Assembly: GCF_016481275.1 (NCBI RefSeq)
Contig: NZ_JAEMNW010000002.1
Span: 1,116,001 to 1,180,000, forward strand
Direction: 5' to 3'
Length of the DNA stretch: 64,000 nucleotides
Source of the DNA: Antrihabitans auranticaus
Lineage (GTDB): Bacteria > Actinomycetota > Actinomycetes > Mycobacteriales > Mycobacteriaceae
Both the position numbers and the translations under genes were made by a program. Positions 43,659-55,527 of the stretch are shown here, piece by piece. Under the pieces are notes generated by a model. The model ran no database searches. It was not told the origin of the DNA and worked only from the letters and a program-made list of their open reading frames with translations. Every line of letters starts with the position of its first letter. The first letter of the stretch is position 1.

Positions 43659-44291
43659 TCAGCTCCCGAGGAGGTCGGCTACTTCGGTCGTCATGGCCCG
43701 ATTGACGAGCGCCGAGCGCTTCCGGTTCTGCGGCAGTTCCGAGATGTCGAACCGTTCGTAGAGTGCCTGCAGGTGCCGTGCAACCGTCTCGACGGTGACG
43801 CCGAGTTCGGCGGCGATGTCTTGATTCGTAGCCGGATTGGCGAACTTCCGATTGTCCAGAAACGGTCGGCACAACGCGCGCAACACCGCGGTCTGGGCCT
43901 TCGTCAGCACCATCGGTTCGCCCGACCCCGCCGCGGTTCGCACGCCTTCCACCGGACCTTCGAACACCAGCTGCGCATCGCCGACGCCCACGGTGTCGCC
44001 GGCGCAGAGCCGGCGCCGCCCGAAGACGCGTTCGCCGTTGACGAATGTTCCGTTCGTCGACACCCCGTGGTCTGCGATGGTCCACTCGTCGGCGATCAGT
44101 TCGAGGACGGCGTGCAGTCGAGACACTTCGGGATGGCCGCTCAGCGGAATGTCAGCAGTCGAATCGCGGCCGATCGTCAGGCGCGGCGTGTTCTCGGCCA
44201 GCGGCACGAGAGTGTCCGCAGCCCCCGATTGCGGTACCCGAAGCCAGGACCGCCCAACAGCTTTCGTGGATTCCGCATCGTCGGCACTCAT
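43659..44291 (-). CDS. FHA domain protein with C-terminal helix-turn-helix
   Basis: 210 residues. N-terminal FHA phosphothreonine-binding domain with the classic R-x-S…S-R-x-H-A pattern (TIGRDSTADIPLSGHPEVSRLHAVLEL) and GVSTNGTFVNGERV. C-terminal winged/LuxR-like HTH (NQDIAAELGVTVETVARHLQALYERFDI). The domain order suggests a DNA-binding regulator controlled by a Ser/Thr kinase, as found in other actinobacteria. ATG at 44291. Divergent from the ChaB/Rho_N gene at 44452. Confidence 0.82.
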   Translation of the reverse strand: MSADDAESTKAVGRSWLRVPQSGAADTLVPLAENTPRLTIGRDSTADIPLSGHPEVSRLHAVLELIADEWTIADHGVSTNGTFVNGERVFGRRRLCAGDTVGVGDAQLVFEGPVEGVRTAAGSGEPMVLTKAQTAVLRALCRPFLDNRKFANPATNQDIAAELGVTVETVARHLQALYERFDISELPQNRKRSALVNRAMTTEVADLLGS

Positions 44292-44451
44292 CAGCGGTAA
44301 TCCTCCTGCGCACGAGTGATCGACGTAACCGGCTGTCGGAACGATTTCGATACTAGGGTTTGCGCGCGCCCGACGAAAGCGTGCCGCCACCCGCCGTTTC
44401 ACTGGGGTCGCTGCGGGTATCCGAATTTCGAACCAGCTCCGATCGGAAGGG

Positions 44452-44877
44452 ATGACCGTGCCGAAGACCACCAAGACCGGCAAACCCAAGCAGGACGAAT
44501 TGTCCAGCACCTTGCAGAAGTCGGATGCCAAGGCGCAACGCACTTTCGCCAAGACCTACGATTCCGCGGCCGATCAGTACGGCGAAGGCGAACGTGCTCA
44601 TCGCGTCGCGTACGACGCGTTGAAACACAGCTACGAGAAGGTCGGCGACCACTGGGAGGAGAAGGACAAGAAGGGGCCATCCGACGCGCGAGCCAAGAGC
44701 GGTGGACCGAATGCCAAGGGAAAGACCGCAGAGGGCGTCGACGCCAACTCGACAAAGAAGCACTTGCTCGATATCGCGCGCAGGCTCGACGTACGCGGCC
44801 GATCGACGATGAGAAAGGCCGACCTGGTTTCCGCCATCGAGAAGGCGAATCGGCGAGAGTCCGCCAAGAATCGGTGA
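44452..44877 (+). CDS. ChaB-like/Rho_N domain protein
   Basis: 141-residue, very basic protein. Residues 14-65 resemble the ChaB fold (ELSSTLQKSDAKAQRTFAKTYDSAADQYGEGERAHRVAYDALKHSYEK). A flexible Lys/Gly/Pro linker leads to a C-terminal Rho_N/SAP-like nucleic-acid binding segment (TKKHLLDIARRLDVRGRSTMRKADLVSAIEKANR). ATG at 44452 follows GGAAGGG. ChaB was named as a cation transport regulator, but this domain pair more likely binds DNA or RNA. Expression as a stress protein is plausible and unproven. Confidence 0.82.
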   Translation: MTVPKTTKTGKPKQDELSSTLQKSDAKAQRTFAKTYDSAADQYGEGERAHRVAYDALKHSYEKVGDHWEEKDKKGPSDARAKSGGPNAKGKTAEGVDANSTKKHLLDIARRLDVRGRSTMRKADLVSAIEKANRRESAKNR

Positions 44878-49902: not shown

Positions 49903-50646
49903 TTACATGCCGTAGAAGCCCTGTGTGGCCCACTCGGTCAGCGGACCCAACGTGCCGTTGTAGACGTTGCTGTCGCACGGAACGCTGATGCCCGGGATCG
50001 TTGCTGCGTCGGTCGTCTGCCAGAACACCCAGTTCGTCCAGCCACCGACGAGGTAGGGGTCCTTCACGTCCTTGCCCCAGTCGGAGATCCAGAGCGGGTA
50101 CTGCGAGAACTCGTGGGTGTCGTTGACACCGTCCTCCCAGAACTCCGTGGTGTAGATGATGGCCTTCTTACCGGTCATCACCTCGACCACATTGAGCCAG
50201 CGGTGCAACCAGTTGATGATGGTTGCCGCGGAAGCTCCGTTGGACCGTTCGACGGCGATGAGCGGTGGCAGCGAACCCATGACGTTCTGCGGGAAGACCG
50301 TCGTCACGTAGTGGATCGCCTGCATTTCCGGCGACTCACCGAAGACTGGGAAGTGGTAGGCGCCGCGGAGCACACCGGCCGCACGCATCCGCGCCGTGTC
50401 GTCGTTGAAGTACGGGTTGACGTAGTCCGTGCCTTCGGTCGCCTTGATCATGCCGAAGTCGTGGCCGGCATCCTTGACCGCCTGCCAGTCGATCGGCGCC
50501 CCGCCGACGTGCTGGTGCGAGGAGATATCCGGACCGGTCGGCCGATCTTCGGCCTGCGCGGTCGGCGTCGCGACGAGCGCGACCACCAACGCGAGCGGGA
50601 CAGCAGAGAACAGCGTTCGACGAAAAACGGGGAGCACCGAGACCAT
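49903..50646 (-). CDS. Secreted GH25 lysozyme-like protein, degenerate active site
   Basis: 247 residues. Signal peptide (SAVPLALVVALVATPTAQA), then a single GH25 (N,O-diacetylmuramidase) domain: GPDISSHQH with D40, DFGMIKATEGTDYVNPYF, VLRGAYHFPVFG, and LWISDWG. In GH25 enzymes the catalytic pair lies in a D-x-E motif (LDLE or similar). Here the motif reads LIAVE, so the Asp position is A131 and only E133 remains. That change is expected to lower or abolish muramidase activity and may leave a peptidoglycan-binding protein. ATG at 50646. Divergent from the SEDS-PBP fusion. Confidence 0.87.
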   Translation of the reverse strand: MVSVLPVFRRTLFSAVPLALVVALVATPTAQAEDRPTGPDISSHQHVGGAPIDWQAVKDAGHDFGMIKATEGTDYVNPYFNDDTARMRAAGVLRGAYHFPVFGESPEMQAIHYVTTVFPQNVMGSLPPLIAVERSNGASAATIINWLHRWLNVVEVMTGKKAIIYTTEFWEDGVNDTHEFSQYPLWISDWGKDVKDPYLVGGWTNWVFWQTTDAATIPGISVPCDSNVYNGTLGPLTEWATQGFYGM

Positions 50647-50941
50647 GGCTGAGGACGCTATCGCGACAGCGTGCGCCGAGCAAGCCAAACACGAAGAAAC
50701 GGACAACGGCCACGACCCGCCGTAGCAGTTGTGCAACACCGGAATCAGTCTGTGGGGCATAATTCGGAGGACCCCGTTCACGCCCGGCAAGTCCCTTGTG
50801 TCGTATTTCACCTGCGGAATCGGGTCGGGGCTTTGCCCTGCCGATGTCGGGTACGATCTTCCGAGCGCCGGATCCATCTATGTTCACGGTAGATTGAGCG
50901 CAACTTTGATCACGCGCGTGCAACGGATGGAGGTCGTTATA

Positions 50942-53900
50942 GTGCTTCGCGGCCTCGATGCACTCTTTTTAGATGGCTGGATCGGCATTAGCCGACTGTT
51001 CATTTTGTCCGGCCTCGGGCTCGCGATTGTGAACGGTTTACGGTTCCTCGCTGATCGCCCCAGCGCAGCATTTCCCGTCATCGCAGCGCCGTCCGCCGCT
51101 GCCCGCGCGAGTGCAGCCAGATATTTCCACGGCGGGTACGCGTCACTGGGCTGGCCGCTGCTGCTTGTATGGCTCGGCTTCTGGGTCGGCACGCACCTCC
51201 GGACCACACCCTGGGAACTGATCGCCGGTTTACCAATTGCCGTGCTGGCCGTTCTCGGAATCCGAGTGCTGCGTACGGCGCACGCGAAGCGCGGCGACGA
51301 ATTCATTGCCGGTCCCGCGGTCGCCGTTCTTTTGGCAATGCTCACGCTCGTGCAATTCGGGCTTTTGCTGGTCGTCCGATTGGTCGTCGTGAGTCAGCCG
51401 GACGACGGCTTGGAAGCGGGACTCTCTGCCGAACATGCCGCGGATGGATTACGGACCGTCGTACTTCCCGCTGCGACGCTGCTCATTGCGGTTGCCGTGA
51501 CGATTCTCGCGCAGCGGCGGGGCACGGAATTTGCACCGGGTGTCCGCCTGCGGTTTGCACGGATAAAGGCCATTCTCTTCGATCGGCCGCGCACATGGGC
51601 GCGGCAATTCTCCCCCGACGCGCGATACATCGCCGCAATCGGATTCGTGTTCCTGCTTTATGCCGCGCCGCTCCTGGACGACGGAATGGTCATAGGCGGT
51701 GTAGCGACGCCCGAGTACGGCAAGATCGTCTACTTCGCCGTCCTGGCGCTCGTCATGGCGGAGTATGCGCACCTCTTCCGGGCGCGCTCCAGCCGCCAGC
51801 CCGGCTGGCGCGAATTCCTTCGTGCGCGCCGGCACATCGCATACCCCATCGCGCTCTTCTGCGCCGTCGGCGTCGCGAGCGTCCTGAAACTGGATATGGG
51901 CCCGACGATCCCGGTTTTCGCCGGCACAGCCGTCGTGATGCTCTACGTCATTGCGATCCAGTCCGGACGGGCACAGAATGTCGCCGACCAGCACGGGATC
52001 AGACGAGCGTTCGCGTGGTTGCGGGACGCCACACGGTCGGCACGCCCGCTGCTCCCGATCGCAATCGTCGTCCTGATCGGCATCGCGATCATGTTCCTCA
52101 CGCCGTACATCTCCGTGCGCGCAGAGGTCTGGAAAGACCCGTGGAAGTTCAATTGGTCGCCGCCGTGCTCGGCGCCGCCCGCGACCGCAGTCGTGCCGCC
52201 GACTCCGCCCGGAACCGAAGCCTGCATCGAAACGCTGATCGGTTACTCGGCAAGTAATCGTTCGCAGATCGCGCATTCGCTTTCCGACGTCGCCGACGGC
52301 GGGCTGTGGGGCCGCGGTTTGACCGACACGACGTCGGGTCGGCTCCCGGCGGGATCGACCGACTTCATTTTCGCGGTGATCTGGAGCAAGCTCGGCGGAA
52401 TTGTCGTCGCGATGCTCGGGGCGGTTCTTGCAATTCTCGCCGCGGGACTGGCGAGGCTCGGGCGATATCTCAGCACGGACGAAGACGCCGAATCCTCGAG
52501 CAGGCTTCGCGCCGACCGACTTTTCGTTCTCGGAGTCGTCGGAGCGATTGTCGGCCAGTTCCTGTTCGTGCTGGCCGCGACATTGAATGTCGTGCCGCAC
52601 TCGGGCATTACTGCACCATTTCTTTCCCGTGGTGCGCAGTCGACGATGGCGCTTTCTTTGGGCGTATTCCTGGCAATGGTGTGGCAATACGCCGCGAGTG
52701 CGCCGCGAGTTCGAACCGACAGACCAACAGCGGCGGCCACCGACAAGACGTCCGGCACTCCACCGTGGTTGCTTCGGCAGTGGATTCCCGCGGGCGCCTT
52801 TGCGCTTGCCTGCTTCATGCTGACCGCCAACATCACGTTGAACCCGTATTCCGGTTACGACGAGAGCAGGCCGTTCTGCTCCTCCACCGATCCGATCGTC
52901 GATCCTGAACTGTGCTCGACCGACCGCATCGCCTACGCCCGGACAACCGTCGAGTTGAAGATCGACGGCGTCCCGCAGTATCTGCACGATCGCTCGGCGA
53001 TGCGCTGGGAACCGATCGGCCGGCCGATGCTCACGCCGGCGCAGATGGGTGGGCTCATTCAGGTCGGCAACATCGCCGGTGCGCTCGAGCCGACTCTCGG
53101 AGAAACGCTGGGTACGTCGCTTCGTGCGCGCGTCCTGCCGCCGTCGATGAGCGAGGCGGAGCCCGGCGTCATCGACCTCTCCGTCAACCCGGAGATCCAG
53201 CGGACCGCCGCAACCGCACTGAACGCAGATGCGAACGGCGCCGGTCCCCTTGCCGGCGGCGTCGTGGTCATCGATGCGGCGAACGGTCACATCCTTTCGG
53301 CTTCGAGCGCGCCGGGTGTCGACGCGCCTGTTCAGTCGGTCGCCCCGATCGATGACGATGTCAAAGCCGAGTTCGCCGAAGACCATTCCTGGGGTCAGAT
53401 GACCGCAGGCGGAATCGACGAGTCCGGGCCCGACTGCTCCTTGACCGGGATCGACCGTGAGCAATGCGGGCGGTGGATCCTGCAGCCGGTTCCGGCGCGC
53501 GAGGCGGCCGCTGACACACGCCGCTTCGTCGAGAACGATCCAGTCGTGGACCAGCCCCAGCCGAAGGTCAACCGCGCCTTCGACACCACGTACGGACTCG
53601 GTTCGGCCTTCGAGGTTGTCGTCGCCGCCGCGTACCTCACCGAACCGAACACGTCGGCGTCCGATCTCATCCCGGCGCCCGAATCGGTGGACCTCGGCTA
53701 CGACCAGGTCATCTACAACGAAGACGGTGCCGAGTGCGCAGGCACGGTCGACGGTGAGCTGTCGTTGACCGATGCCCTCGCGGTTTCGTGCAATACAGCC
53801 TTCGTCGCACTGAGCCAGCAGATCGGTTGGCCCAAGATTCGCGACACCGCACGAAGCCTCGGCTTCGAGCCGAGTTCGGCACCGGAAGGCACGCCTGCCT

Positions 53901-54460
53901 GGCTCGCCGGCGTCACGATCGGCAGCGGGTCGCGAGTTCCGGAAGGCCCCGAGAACGCAGGTTTGGTGAGCAACGTCTTCGCCGGTGGCGAGGTCGTCGG
54001 TACGCCGTTGCAAATGGCGACCGTCATGGCGGCAATTGCCAACGGCGGCACCGTTATTCAGCCGACCTTGATCACCTCGACGACAGCGGCCGGCGGCGGG
54101 CCCACGAAGACGATCTGGGGTCAGTCACGCTCTGTTCTGACGCGCGATCAGGCCGGCGAGCTCCGCCAGGCACTGTCGGCGACGACGGGCGAGAACGGCA
54201 CCGCAGCAGCGCTCGACGCCGGCGGCGACCGGCAGCTGTGGGTGAAGACGGGAACTTACGACGTTGTCGACGGTGACCTCCCCAGCCCGCCCGGGCAATT
54301 CACTCGCCAGATCACGTGGCTCGTCGGCTTTCTCGACACGCAAGCCGGTCCCGTTTCCTTCGCGGTGGCAGTCGAGAGCCGCGATGAGGCCTCGGGTGCC
54401 GATCGTGTGAGGTGGGTCGCTCAACAGGTGATCGATGCCATTGTGAAGGAGCGGGGATAG
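50942..54460 (+). CDS. SEDS (FtsW/RodA)-penicillin-binding protein fusion
   Basis: 1172 residues in one frame. N-terminal half (to about 585) is a multi-pass SEDS glycosyltransferase. It shows the conserved STDFIFAVI loop with D474 (the Asp essential in RodA) and PHSGITAPFLSRGAQS at about 550-566, equivalent to the FtsW LPFLSYGGS motif. A further membrane helix at about 615-640 leads to an extracytoplasmic domain, then a transpeptidase domain from about 800. There the SxN motif is S949-C-N951 and KTG is K1102-T-G. The SxxK position, however, reads S888-A-F-E891, so the general-base Lys is Glu (GAG at 53612-53614). The usual separate SEDS and class B PBP genes are joined here. GTG at 50942 chosen for GGAGG 8 nt upstream. 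Likely a peptidoglycan polymerase whose own crosslinking is lost or altered. Confidence 0.9.
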   Translation: MLRGLDALFLDGWIGISRLFILSGLGLAIVNGLRFLADRPSAAFPVIAAPSAAARASAARYFHGGYASLGWPLLLVWLGFWVGTHLRTTPWELIAGLPIAVLAVLGIRVLRTAHAKRGDEFIAGPAVAVLLAMLTLVQFGLLLVVRLVVVSQPDDGLEAGLSAEHAADGLRTVVLPAATLLIAVAVTILAQRRGTEFAPGVRLRFARIKAILFDRPRTWARQFSPDARYIAAIGFVFLLYAAPLLDDGMVIGGVATPEYGKIVYFAVLALVMAEYAHLFRARSSRQPGWREFLRARRHIAYPIALFCAVGVASVLKLDMGPTIPVFAGTAVVMLYVIAIQSGRAQNVADQHGIRRAFAWLRDATRSARPLLPIAIVVLIGIAIMFLTPYISVRAEVWKDPWKFNWSPPCSAPPATAVVPPTPPGTEACIETLIGYSASNRSQIAHSLSDVADGGLWGRGLTDTTSGRLPAGSTDFIFAVIWSKLGGIVVAMLGAVLAILAAGLARLGRYLSTDEDAESSSRLRADRLFVLGVVGAIVGQFLFVLAATLNVVPHSGITAPFLSRGAQSTMALSLGVFLAMVWQYAASAPRVRTDRPTAAATDKTSGTPPWLLRQWIPAGAFALACFMLTANITLNPYSGYDESRPFCSSTDPIVDPELCSTDRIAYARTTVELKIDGVPQYLHDRSAMRWEPIGRPMLTPAQMGGLIQVGNIAGALEPTLGETLGTSLRARVLPPSMSEAEPGVIDLSVNPEIQRTAATALNADANGAGPLAGGVVVIDAANGHILSASSAPGVDAPVQSVAPIDDDVKAEFAEDHSWGQMTAGGIDESGPDCSLTGIDREQCGRWILQPVPAREAAADTRRFVENDPVVDQPQPKVNRAFDTTYGLGSAFEVVVAAAYLTEPNTSASDLIPAPESVDLGYDQVIYNEDGAECAGTVDGELSLTDALAVSCNTAFVALSQQIGWPKIRDTARSLGFEPSSAPEGTPAWLAGVTIGSGSRVPEGPENAGLVSNVFAGGEVVGTPLQMATVMAAIANGGTVIQPTLITSTTAAGGGPTKTIWGQSRSVLTRDQAGELRQALSATTGENGTAAALDAGGDRQLWVKTGTYDVVDGDLPSPPGQFTRQITWLVGFLDTQAGPVSFAVAVESRDEASGADRVRWVAQQVIDAIVKERG

Positions 54461-54483: not shown

Positions 54484-55527
54484 GTGACCGACAACGTTTC
54501 CGCACCCGAAGCAGCTACAACCGGGGAGAAAGCCGACCTACTGCTGACAGCTCTCGTCGAGTATTGGCGGCAGCAGTTGACCGGTCCCGCGTTGGACGTA
54601 CTACTCGAGCGCGAGGTGGATGACGCGCTCGATACTGCGGATCGCCTGACGTTGAATCAGGTCGTCACGCCGGAGCAGATCACGACGACGGCGCAGAAGT
54701 ACGCCACCCAATGGCGCATCGAAGGTTCCATTCCGGAGCTTGCCGGTGAGATTGCGAGGCGCTTGTACGCGCACAGCGCGCACGATCGTGAACCGCTGCG
54801 CCTACTGCTCGACCAGCGTCAGTTCGAAGAGTTCACGGCCTCTCTCGCCGGTCTACCCGCGTTCGGGCGATTGATCGACCGGCTGTATGCGAGTCCCCTC
54901 ACCACCAGTTGGGCGTCGTGGTTCGTCCATCGCATCGCGACCGATGTGGTCGCGGACAATCGGCGGGTGGCAGAGAAGGTCCCCGGCGTCACCGAGGTCA
55001 TCAACGTCGGTGCCCAGATCCTCGGCAAGATCGCGCCGAACGCCGGACGTGAGGCGGATCTGCGCCTTCAGGAGCTCTCCGAGCGCATCGTTCGCTATGT
55101 CCAGGCAAAGACGCGCACCGCCCAGCCCCTGGACGACACGGGCGTTTTCGTCGACGCGGCTGCCGACCTCTGGCGCGAGCACGAGAACGATCCGATCAGT
55201 TCGTTCGGCGATCTGCTCTCGACCGACGACATCGAGGACCTCATGGTCCTGGCGTTCGAGTTCTTCTTCACCTTCCGCACGACGGACTACTTCCGAGAGC
55301 TCCTGGCCGAGGGGGTCGGCTACTTCTTCGAAAAGTACGGCGAAGCGACGTTGGCCGAGTTGCTCGAAGACATCGGTGTCGGGCGCGCGGACATACTCGA
55401 GGAAGCTAGGCGTTTCGCGCCCTCGATCCTGCAGCTGGTGCTGGACAACGGGATGTTCGAGGACTGGATTCGGCGCACCCACGCCGACTTCTTCAACTCT
55501 CCCGCAGTCCATACAATCCTTGCGTGA
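54484..55527 (+). CDS. Conserved hypothetical protein, unknown function
   Basis: 347 residues, soluble and mostly helical, no signal peptide or membrane segment. Sequence is acidic with repeated helical stretches (DLLLTALVEYWRQQ, FEFFFTFRTTDYFRELLAEGVGYFFEKYG, LQLVLDNGMFEDWIRRTHADFF). No catalytic motif or known domain recognised. GTG at 54484, 23 nt after the fusion gene stop, so it is in the same transcription unit and may serve it. Ends just before the long leader region. Confidence 0.8.
   Translation: MTDNVSAPEAATTGEKADLLLTALVEYWRQQLTGPALDVLLEREVDDALDTADRLTLNQVVTPEQITTTAQKYATQWRIEGSIPELAGEIARRLYAHSAHDREPLRLLLDQRQFEEFTASLAGLPAFGRLIDRLYASPLTTSWASWFVHRIATDVVADNRRVAEKVPGVTEVINVGAQILGKIAPNAGREADLRLQELSERIVRYVQAKTRTAQPLDDTGVFVDAAADLWREHENDPISSFGDLLSTDDIEDLMVLAFEFFFTFRTTDYFRELLAEGVGYFFEKYGEATLAELLEDIGVGRADILEEARRFAPSILQLVLDNGMFEDWIRRTHADFFNSPAVHTILA

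What the first reader, a model, noticed from the sequence alone, without database searches (positions are those of the whole stretch)
50942..54460. SEDS polymerase fused to a PBP whose SxxK motif is SxxE
One 1172-residue protein joins an FtsW/RodA-type glycosyltransferase (conserved D474 kept) to a transpeptidase domain. In the latter SxN and KTG are intact, but the Lys of SxxK is Glu (SAFE at 888-891, a one-base change from AAG). The Lys is considered essential for acylation, so this may be a natural polymerase with a catalytically silent or differently acting partner domain, perhaps serving as an activator or beta-lactam-insensitive scaffold. SEDS and PBP normally work as separate cognate proteins.
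Basis: partly seen in the sequence, partly recalled or inferred. Interest (0 to 1): 0.8.

Follow-up and report, generated by a model that had tools for sequence, protein, structure and literature searches.

The report
Fused wall polymerase with silenced crosslinker
One bacterial protein joins the enzyme that strings cell-wall sugars together to the enzyme that normally cross-links them, but in this genome the cross-linker has lost a key active-site lysine, so it probably survives as a switch for the polymerase rather than as a working, penicillin-sensitive enzyme.

Summary
Window 50942-54460 (+) encodes one 1172-aa protein: a SEDS-type polymerase followed by a PbpA-like class B PBP domain. The catalytic Asp (D474), SxN and KTG are kept; SxxK reads S-A-F-E. 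The Glu is not a family trait: all 15 distinct full-length relatives found (Actinokineospora, Lentzea, Saccharothrix, Dactylosporangium and others) read STFK, so two of the four motif residues differ here. The domain otherwise shows no clear sign of decay: 7 of 149 otherwise invariant columns differ, the frame is intact and composition is host-like. In all 15 relatives the fusion is followed by a kinase-like protein, a zinc-ribbon P-loop GTPase resembling DO-GTPase2 and a GAP1-like protein. The window has none of these, and the GTPase query found nothing in the genome. Best reading: an orphaned, probably horizontally acquired SEDS-bPBP fusion whose transpeptidase is silent in this lineage and kept as a built-in polymerase activator. 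Early decay, a recent mutation or a base error are not excluded. Natural SEDS-PBP fusions are already mentioned in print; in the papers I could search I saw no report of the GTPase association.

The parts
50942..54460 (+). SEDS-class B PBP fusion, 1172 aa, GTG start
50929..50933 (+). GGAGG, likely ribosome-binding site, 8 nt before the GTG
   Evidence: sequence shown; the reading is inference
52265..52669 (+). part of the SEDS domain matched by PF01098 (residues 442-576)
52361..52363 (+). catalytic Asp codon, D474, invariant in the 12-row alignment
   Evidence: equated by motif with E. coli FtsW D297, called the putative catalytic residue in PMC8765783 (passages)
53261..54406 (+). transpeptidase domain, PF00905 match (residues 774-1155)
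53603..53614 (+). S888-A889-F890-E891 in place of STFK; GCC at 53606-53608, GAG at 53612-53614
53786..53794 (+). SxN motif S949-C-N951
54245..54253 (+). KTG motif K1102-T-G1104
54484..55527 (+). next gene, 347 aa, starting 23 nt after the fusion's stop; unnamed family with 4 copies in the genome; a copy 74% identical (query 36-370) lies in a congener that lacks the fusion
   Evidence: start choice and co-transcription are inference
49903..50877 (-). divergent neighbour with a GH25 (lysozyme-type) domain
   Evidence: PF01183, E 2.1e-38

Best explanation
This is an orphaned member of a conserved actinobacterial family of natural SEDS-bPBP fusions. It was probably gained from outside its own family of bacteria and kept long enough to take on host composition (inferred). 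The SEDS half still polymerises lipid II, using D474 (inferred from sequence). The PBP half keeps its fold and its tethered stalk (pedestal) and helps hold the polymerase in the active state, but without the SxxK lysine it no longer acylates, so it should neither cross-link nor bind penicillin efficiently (inferred). Cross-linking of its glycan would fall to the cell's other PBPs, which are present by sequence.
For: Both domains over Pfam cut-offs; D474, S888, SCN and KTG kept. T889A and K891E are the only changes in the catalytic motifs; in all, 7 of 149 columns invariant in the other 11 rows differ. In a 6-row comparison P0001 departs from the other five at 15 of 112 SEDS and 15 of 109 TP columns, no excess in TP. 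TP/SEDS terminal branch ratio 1.51 against 0.47-3.73 in 11 relatives. Intact 1172-codon frame with GC3 0.766; 33 window genes 0.799 (sd 0.028); 11 relatives 0.865-0.982. Two further SEDS genes in the genome, one beside a PbpA-like gene with STFK. Absent from the 3 other genomes of the genus at E 1e-30 and, at E 1e-20, no other fusion in two overlapping family draws of 401 and 381 genomes. In B. subtilis and S. aureus transpeptidase-dead FtsI homologues still support division, explained by pedestal-to-ECL4 activation of FtsW (PMC8078798, passages).
Against: No other genome shares the Glu, so selection for it is unproven; a recent or slightly harmful mutation, or an error, would look the same. 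T889A adds little by itself: a canonical PBP of the same genome has another residue there (SVNK). Of the 7 relatives with whole-protein branches over 0.3, five have TP/SEDS ratios of 0.73-1.00 and two 1.78 and 2.23, so mild acceleration of TP at 1.51 is not excluded. The operon present in all 15 relatives is missing here, which fits a protein that has lost its job. In an engineered E. coli fusion the PBP2 membrane helix alone stimulates RodA (PMC10449877, passage), so a whole PBP half need not be kept for activation. RodA working while PBP2 is inactive causes a toxic futile cycle in E. coli (PMC6207328, passage). No activity data exist.
Confidence: 0.48

Rival explanations
1. Early decay: after transfer or loss of the operon the fusion became useless; K891E is an early hit in a future pseudogene.
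For: 15 of 15 relatives keep STFK and the operon; the window carries none of the operon genes and the GTPase query gave no hit in the genome (which had no positive control). Both motif changes fall in one motif.
Against: Frame intact and composition host-like; TP/SEDS ratio within the family range; other catalytic motifs intact.
Confidence: 0.25
2. Sequencing or assembly error at 53612; the true residue is Lys and the protein is an ordinary fused synthase.
For: One base from the codon for the residue that all relatives have, seen in a single draft genome of 24 contigs.
Against: The neighbouring Ala at 889 is a second change in the same motif and needs another base, though it could be a true and harmless change. 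The genome is rated 99.94% complete with 0.15% contamination; neither number measures base accuracy.
Confidence: 0.18
3. Glu takes over as general base or gives a different chemistry, for instance hydrolysis instead of transpeptidation.
For: S888, SxN and KTG are kept, so a nucleophile and its pocket may still form. Serine-glutamate catalysis exists in sedolisins (recalled).
Against: No precedent seen; two library searches with SXXK terms returned 0 papers. All 15 relatives keep Lys, as do 9 of 10 canonical PBPs examined, the tenth not covered by its alignment.
Confidence: 0.05

Closest known systems
Fifteen actinobacterial SEDS-bPBP fusions found here (among them Actinokineospora, Lentzea, Saccharothrix, Dactylosporangium)
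   Same: Same order of domains in one frame; 37-48% identity to the 11 aligned over the full length; same catalytic Asp, SxN, KTG
   Different: They read STFK and are followed by kinase-like, GTPase and GAP1-like genes; the window copy reads SAFE and has none of these
RodA-PBP2 and FtsW-FtsI (separate proteins)
   Same: SEDS polymerase plus class B PBP; the pedestal-ECL4 activation logic is assumed to carry over
   Different: Two genes; FtsW has 10 membrane segments (PMC8078798, passage), whereas a low-confidence model here suggests about 14 helices, 10 of them before ECL4; a plain hydropathy scan passes only about 11
Natural SEDS-PBP fusion cited to the Rhodococcus sp. RHA1 genome (PMC10449877, passage and reference list)
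   Same: Single ORF for both activities
   Different: The cited paper is not held and I did not see its sequence, so whether it belongs to this family is unknown
M. tuberculosis PbpA (3un7, 3lo7)
   Same: Closest solved sequence to the TP domain, E 1.1e-21, and best fold match of a low-confidence model
   Different: Not fused; STFK intact
GAP1-N2-type double-GTPase conflict systems (PMC7159879, passages), for the relatives' operon only
   Same: Zn-ribbon-like CPxC, P-loop, DLxGE and K-x-D residues in the GTPase; GAP-like gene just downstream
   Different: Pfam scores are below cut-off; the paper's main text has no FtsW, RodA, SEDS, penicillin or transpeptidase

Membership tests
SEDS polymerases (PF01098) | Profile match over curated cut-off | tested here: met
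   55.9 bits against 26.4, over profile positions 219-345 only
SEDS polymerases (PF01098) | Catalytic Asp in ECL4 | tested here: met
   D474 invariant in 12 of 12 rows
SEDS polymerases (PF01098) | Ten-helix membrane core | tested here: inconclusive
   Model of mean pLDDT 63.4 suggests about 14 helices in all, a hydropathy scan about 11; residues 1-441 are not matched by PF01098
SEDS polymerases (PF01098) | Lipid II polymerisation | not testable with these tools
   needs purified protein
Active class B penicillin-binding transpeptidases (PF00905) | Profile match over cut-off | tested here: met
   83.4 bits against 22.1
Active class B penicillin-binding transpeptidases (PF00905) | SxxK with Lys | tested here: not met
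   SAFE; so it is filed as a PBP homologue, not as an active PBP
Active class B penicillin-binding transpeptidases (PF00905) | SxN and KTG | tested here: met
   SCN 949-951, KTG 1102-1104
Active class B penicillin-binding transpeptidases (PF00905) | Covalent beta-lactam binding | not testable with these tools
   needs a Bocillin assay
Actinobacterial SEDS-bPBP fusions found here | One frame, full-length homology | tested here: met
   37-48% identity to 11 relatives
Actinobacterial SEDS-bPBP fusions found here | Followed by kinase-like, GTPase and GAP1-like genes (a shared trait, not a definition) | tested here: not met
   15 of 15 relatives yes, two of them (L031, L035) being also the source of the queries; window no; GTPase query found nothing in the own genome
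GAP1-N2 double-GTPase systems (relatives' operon) | Pfam DO-GTPase2 / GAP1 over cut-off | tested here: not met
   DO-GTPase2 in 3 of 9 members, best E 0.018; GAP1-M in 1 of 9, E 0.0043, 17.7 bits against 24
GAP1-N2 double-GTPase systems (relatives' operon) | Zn ribbon, P-loop, Glu in Walker B, GAP gene downstream | tested here: met
   By pattern: CPxC 9 of 9, DLxGE 9 of 9, TKxD 8 of 9, a strict P-loop pattern 5 of 9; G112, A115, G117, K118, D246, L247, G249, E250, K352 and D354 invariant in 9 of 9; gene order
GAP1-N2 double-GTPase systems (relatives' operon) | FNIII-repeat component | not tested
   named in PMC7159879; not looked for specifically

The most novel reading that the evidence does not exclude
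A family of fused SEDS-bPBP wall synthases serves as the membrane output of a GTPase/kinase-like conflict-type or stress operon in actinobacteria; in the window lineage the fusion has broken free of that control and turned its transpeptidase into a catalytically silent, beta-lactam-blind activator domain, a natural polymerase-only SEDS-bPBP.
Probability: 0.25. Interest if true: 0.8.

Novelty: new variant of a known kind. Interest (0 to 1): 0.5.

Why it matters
Whether the class B PBP partner is needed as an enzyme or as an allosteric activator is a live question about SEDS synthases. A natural fusion with an altered acylation motif would let the two roles be separated without engineering, with SxxK-bearing relatives as natural controls. 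The relatives' operon, a wall synthase beside a GTPase, a kinase-like protein and a GAP1-like protein in 15 of 15 cases, suggests wall synthesis under a signalling system of the kind proposed for biological conflicts, which is testable by deletion.

Tried and rejected
Glu conserved in a subfamily: rejected for what was found, 15 of 15 distinct relatives read STFK. Frameshift or split gene: rejected, open frame and homology throughout. General relaxation of the TP domain: no clear support. Fusions elsewhere in the family of the genome: the seven weak hits cover only the PBP part; the two I opened, L007 and L008, have separate rodA-like and pbpA-like frames. Plasmid origin: 0 of 12 matching plasmid records cover 80% of the query. 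The single-protein scan of genome contigs found no relative, probably because its exact patterns are private to this protein; the alignment scan worked. Repeats, promoters and terminators around the gene were uninformative. The structure model was weak (mean pLDDT 63.4, pTM 0.48) and is used only for helix order and for the TP fold match. Weak ZorA, SMC and similar hits of the coiled-coil gene lie in its long helical C-terminal part and are not taken as homology. A rough pattern for canonical PBPs failed on 9 of 10 loci and was replaced by alignment.

The tree and the invariant-column counts use 11 of the 15 relatives, the composition table the same 11. L031 and L035 supplied the operon queries and so match themselves.

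Full report
Observation. The frame 50942-54460 (+) is one open 1172-aa protein. Pfam places FTSW_RODA_SPOVE at 442-576 and Transpeptidase at 774-1155, both over their cut-offs. The phmmer alignment to M. tuberculosis PbpA sets S888-A-F-E891 against STFK. S949-C-N951, K1102-T-G and D474 are present, and D474 is invariant in 12 of 12 aligned rows. The Glu codon is GAG at 53612-53614 and the Ala codon GCC at 53606-53608. The gene starts at a GTG with GGAGG before it; the longer TTG start at 50729 is not supported by relatives' N-termini.

The host. The genome (G000, 6.5 Mb, 24 contigs) holds two further SEDS genes, one beside a PbpA-like gene that reads STFK; I take them as FtsW and RodA by position. 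Its name is not given and I did not determine it. The fusion is absent from the 3 other genomes of the genus. In two overlapping draws from its family, 401 and 381 genomes, only G000 has a fusion at E 1e-20; seven further genomes of the first draw matched only through the PBP part, and the two of these I opened have separate rodA-like and pbpA-like frames.

Relatives. A search of 397 genomes of the order with the SEDS half found 6 with a match, one being the own genome. A scan of genome contigs with an alignment gave 10 loci, among them Actinokineospora, Lentzea, Saccharothrix and Dactylosporangium by record title. A search of 297 genomes of the family holding G516 found 12. After removing duplicates, one truncated locus and one SEDS frame without PBP, 15 distinct full-length fusions remain. 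All 15 read STFK, SCN and KTGT; the window alone reads SAFE (partial counts). As a control, 9 of 10 canonical PBPs from the own genome and the family have Lys in SxxK; the tenth is not covered by its alignment.

Is the transpeptidase domain decaying? In the 12-row alignment P0001 differs at 7 of 149 columns that are invariant in the other 11: L249M, D701Q, L702M, T889A, K891E, G903N, G1014A. Two of the seven lie in the SxxK motif. In a 6-row comparison P0001 departs at 15 of 112 SEDS and 15 of 109 TP columns. On a fixed topology the terminal branch of P0001 is 0.514 for SEDS and 0.776 for TP, ratio 1.51; the 11 relatives span 0.47 to 3.73, but of the 7 with whole-protein branches over 0.3, five lie at 0.73-1.00 and two at 1.78 and 2.23, so a mild speeding-up cannot be excluded. 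P0001 groups with two Actinokineospora and one Lentzea on a branch with 88% bootstrap support. GC3 is 0.766, near 33 window genes called by my own simple script (0.799, sd 0.028) and below the 11 relatives measured (0.865-0.982). Its codon usage is closer to the window mean (0.051) than 15 window genes of 1.1-2 kb are on average (0.075), part of which is due to its length. So the gene looks resident and constrained; how old the Glu is cannot be told, and a donor of similar composition would give the same picture.

Home operon. In 15 of 15 relatives the fusion is followed by a kinase-like protein, a zinc-ribbon P-loop protein and a further long protein; a small protein and a coiled-coil protein were matched in 10 of 15 each, one locus ending before the latter. 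The kinase-like protein matches only part of the kinase profile, below cut-off. The P-loop protein has CPxC and DLxGE in 9 of 9 members and invariant residues of P-loop and K-x-D; it matches DO-GTPase2 below cut-off in 3 of 9, and its profile found no solved structure with confidence (best E 0.22). The next protein matches GAP1-M below cut-off in 1 of 9. In L031 it ends in a hydrophobic segment, as do the kinase-like and small proteins. This resembles the GAP1-N2 GTPase-centric systems of PMC7159879 (passages), whose main text holds none of FtsW, RodA, SEDS, penicillin or transpeptidase; its supplements were not read. The window holds no match to these genes, and the GTPase query found nothing in the own genome (without a positive control in that call; the other operon proteins were not searched genome-wide).

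Context in the window. Upstream and divergent lies a GH25-domain protein; downstream, 23 nt after the stop, a 347-aa gene of an unnamed family with 4 copies in the genome; further on an SLT-domain protein. In a congener the 347-aa gene's 74% identical copy lies near DUF445-type membrane genes, one of two over the Pfam cut-off, without the fusion.

Mechanism. Shown: sequence, motifs, absence of the operon. Inferred: polymerase activity through D474; loss of acylation through K891E, since the SxxK Lys is held to be needed for acylation (recalled); an activator role of the remaining PBP half. The last is plausible because transpeptidase-dead FtsI homologues still support division in two Gram-positive species, explained by pedestal-to-ECL4 activation (PMC8078798, passages). 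In an engineered E. coli RodA-PBP2 fusion the PBP2 membrane helix is enough to stimulate RodA (PMC10449877, passage), which shows activation without transpeptidation but also that a whole PBP half is not required for it. Against the reading, glycan made while PBP2 is inactive feeds a futile cycle in E. coli (PMC6207328, passage), so other PBPs would have to cross-link here.

Known or new. PMC10449877 states that single-ORF SEDS-PBP fusions exist and cites the RHA1 genome paper (passage and first part of the reference list), so the architecture is not new. Ten searches of the paper library showed me, in their listings, no paper on a natural SxxE variant or on the GTPase association; some searches listed only part of their hits (15 of 966, 10 of 51, 10 of 42), and most subscription journals are not in that library.

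Verdict. A one-off variant in a conserved and little-described family. The Glu alone is moderately interesting and needs reads first; the family with its operon is the more durable result.

Noticed in passing
L031:8317-19004 and the equivalent stretch in 14 other relatives: Conserved operon: SEDS-bPBP fusion, kinase-like protein, zinc-ribbon DO-GTPase2-like protein, GAP1-like protein, often with a small TM protein and a coiled-coil membrane protein; possibly a wall-linked type of GTPase-centric system.
   Followed up: partly
window 52628-52630 (R563): The Tyr of FtsW ECL5 that does not tolerate Ala (Y379 in E. coli, PMC8765783) appears to be Arg in this family (PFLSRG), with Tyr in L031 only of the 12 aligned rows; equivalence judged by eye, meaning unknown.
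   Followed up: no
window 54484-55527: Unnamed 347-aa protein of a family with 4 copies in this genome; in a congener it sits near DUF445-type membrane genes.
   Followed up: partly
L025:176-1347: Two further small genes downstream of the operon, one with an apparent single TM segment, no match in Pfam or NCBIfam at E 0.1.
   Followed up: no
window 43659-44552 (-): Protein with an FHA domain and weak helix-turn-helix matches.
   Followed up: no
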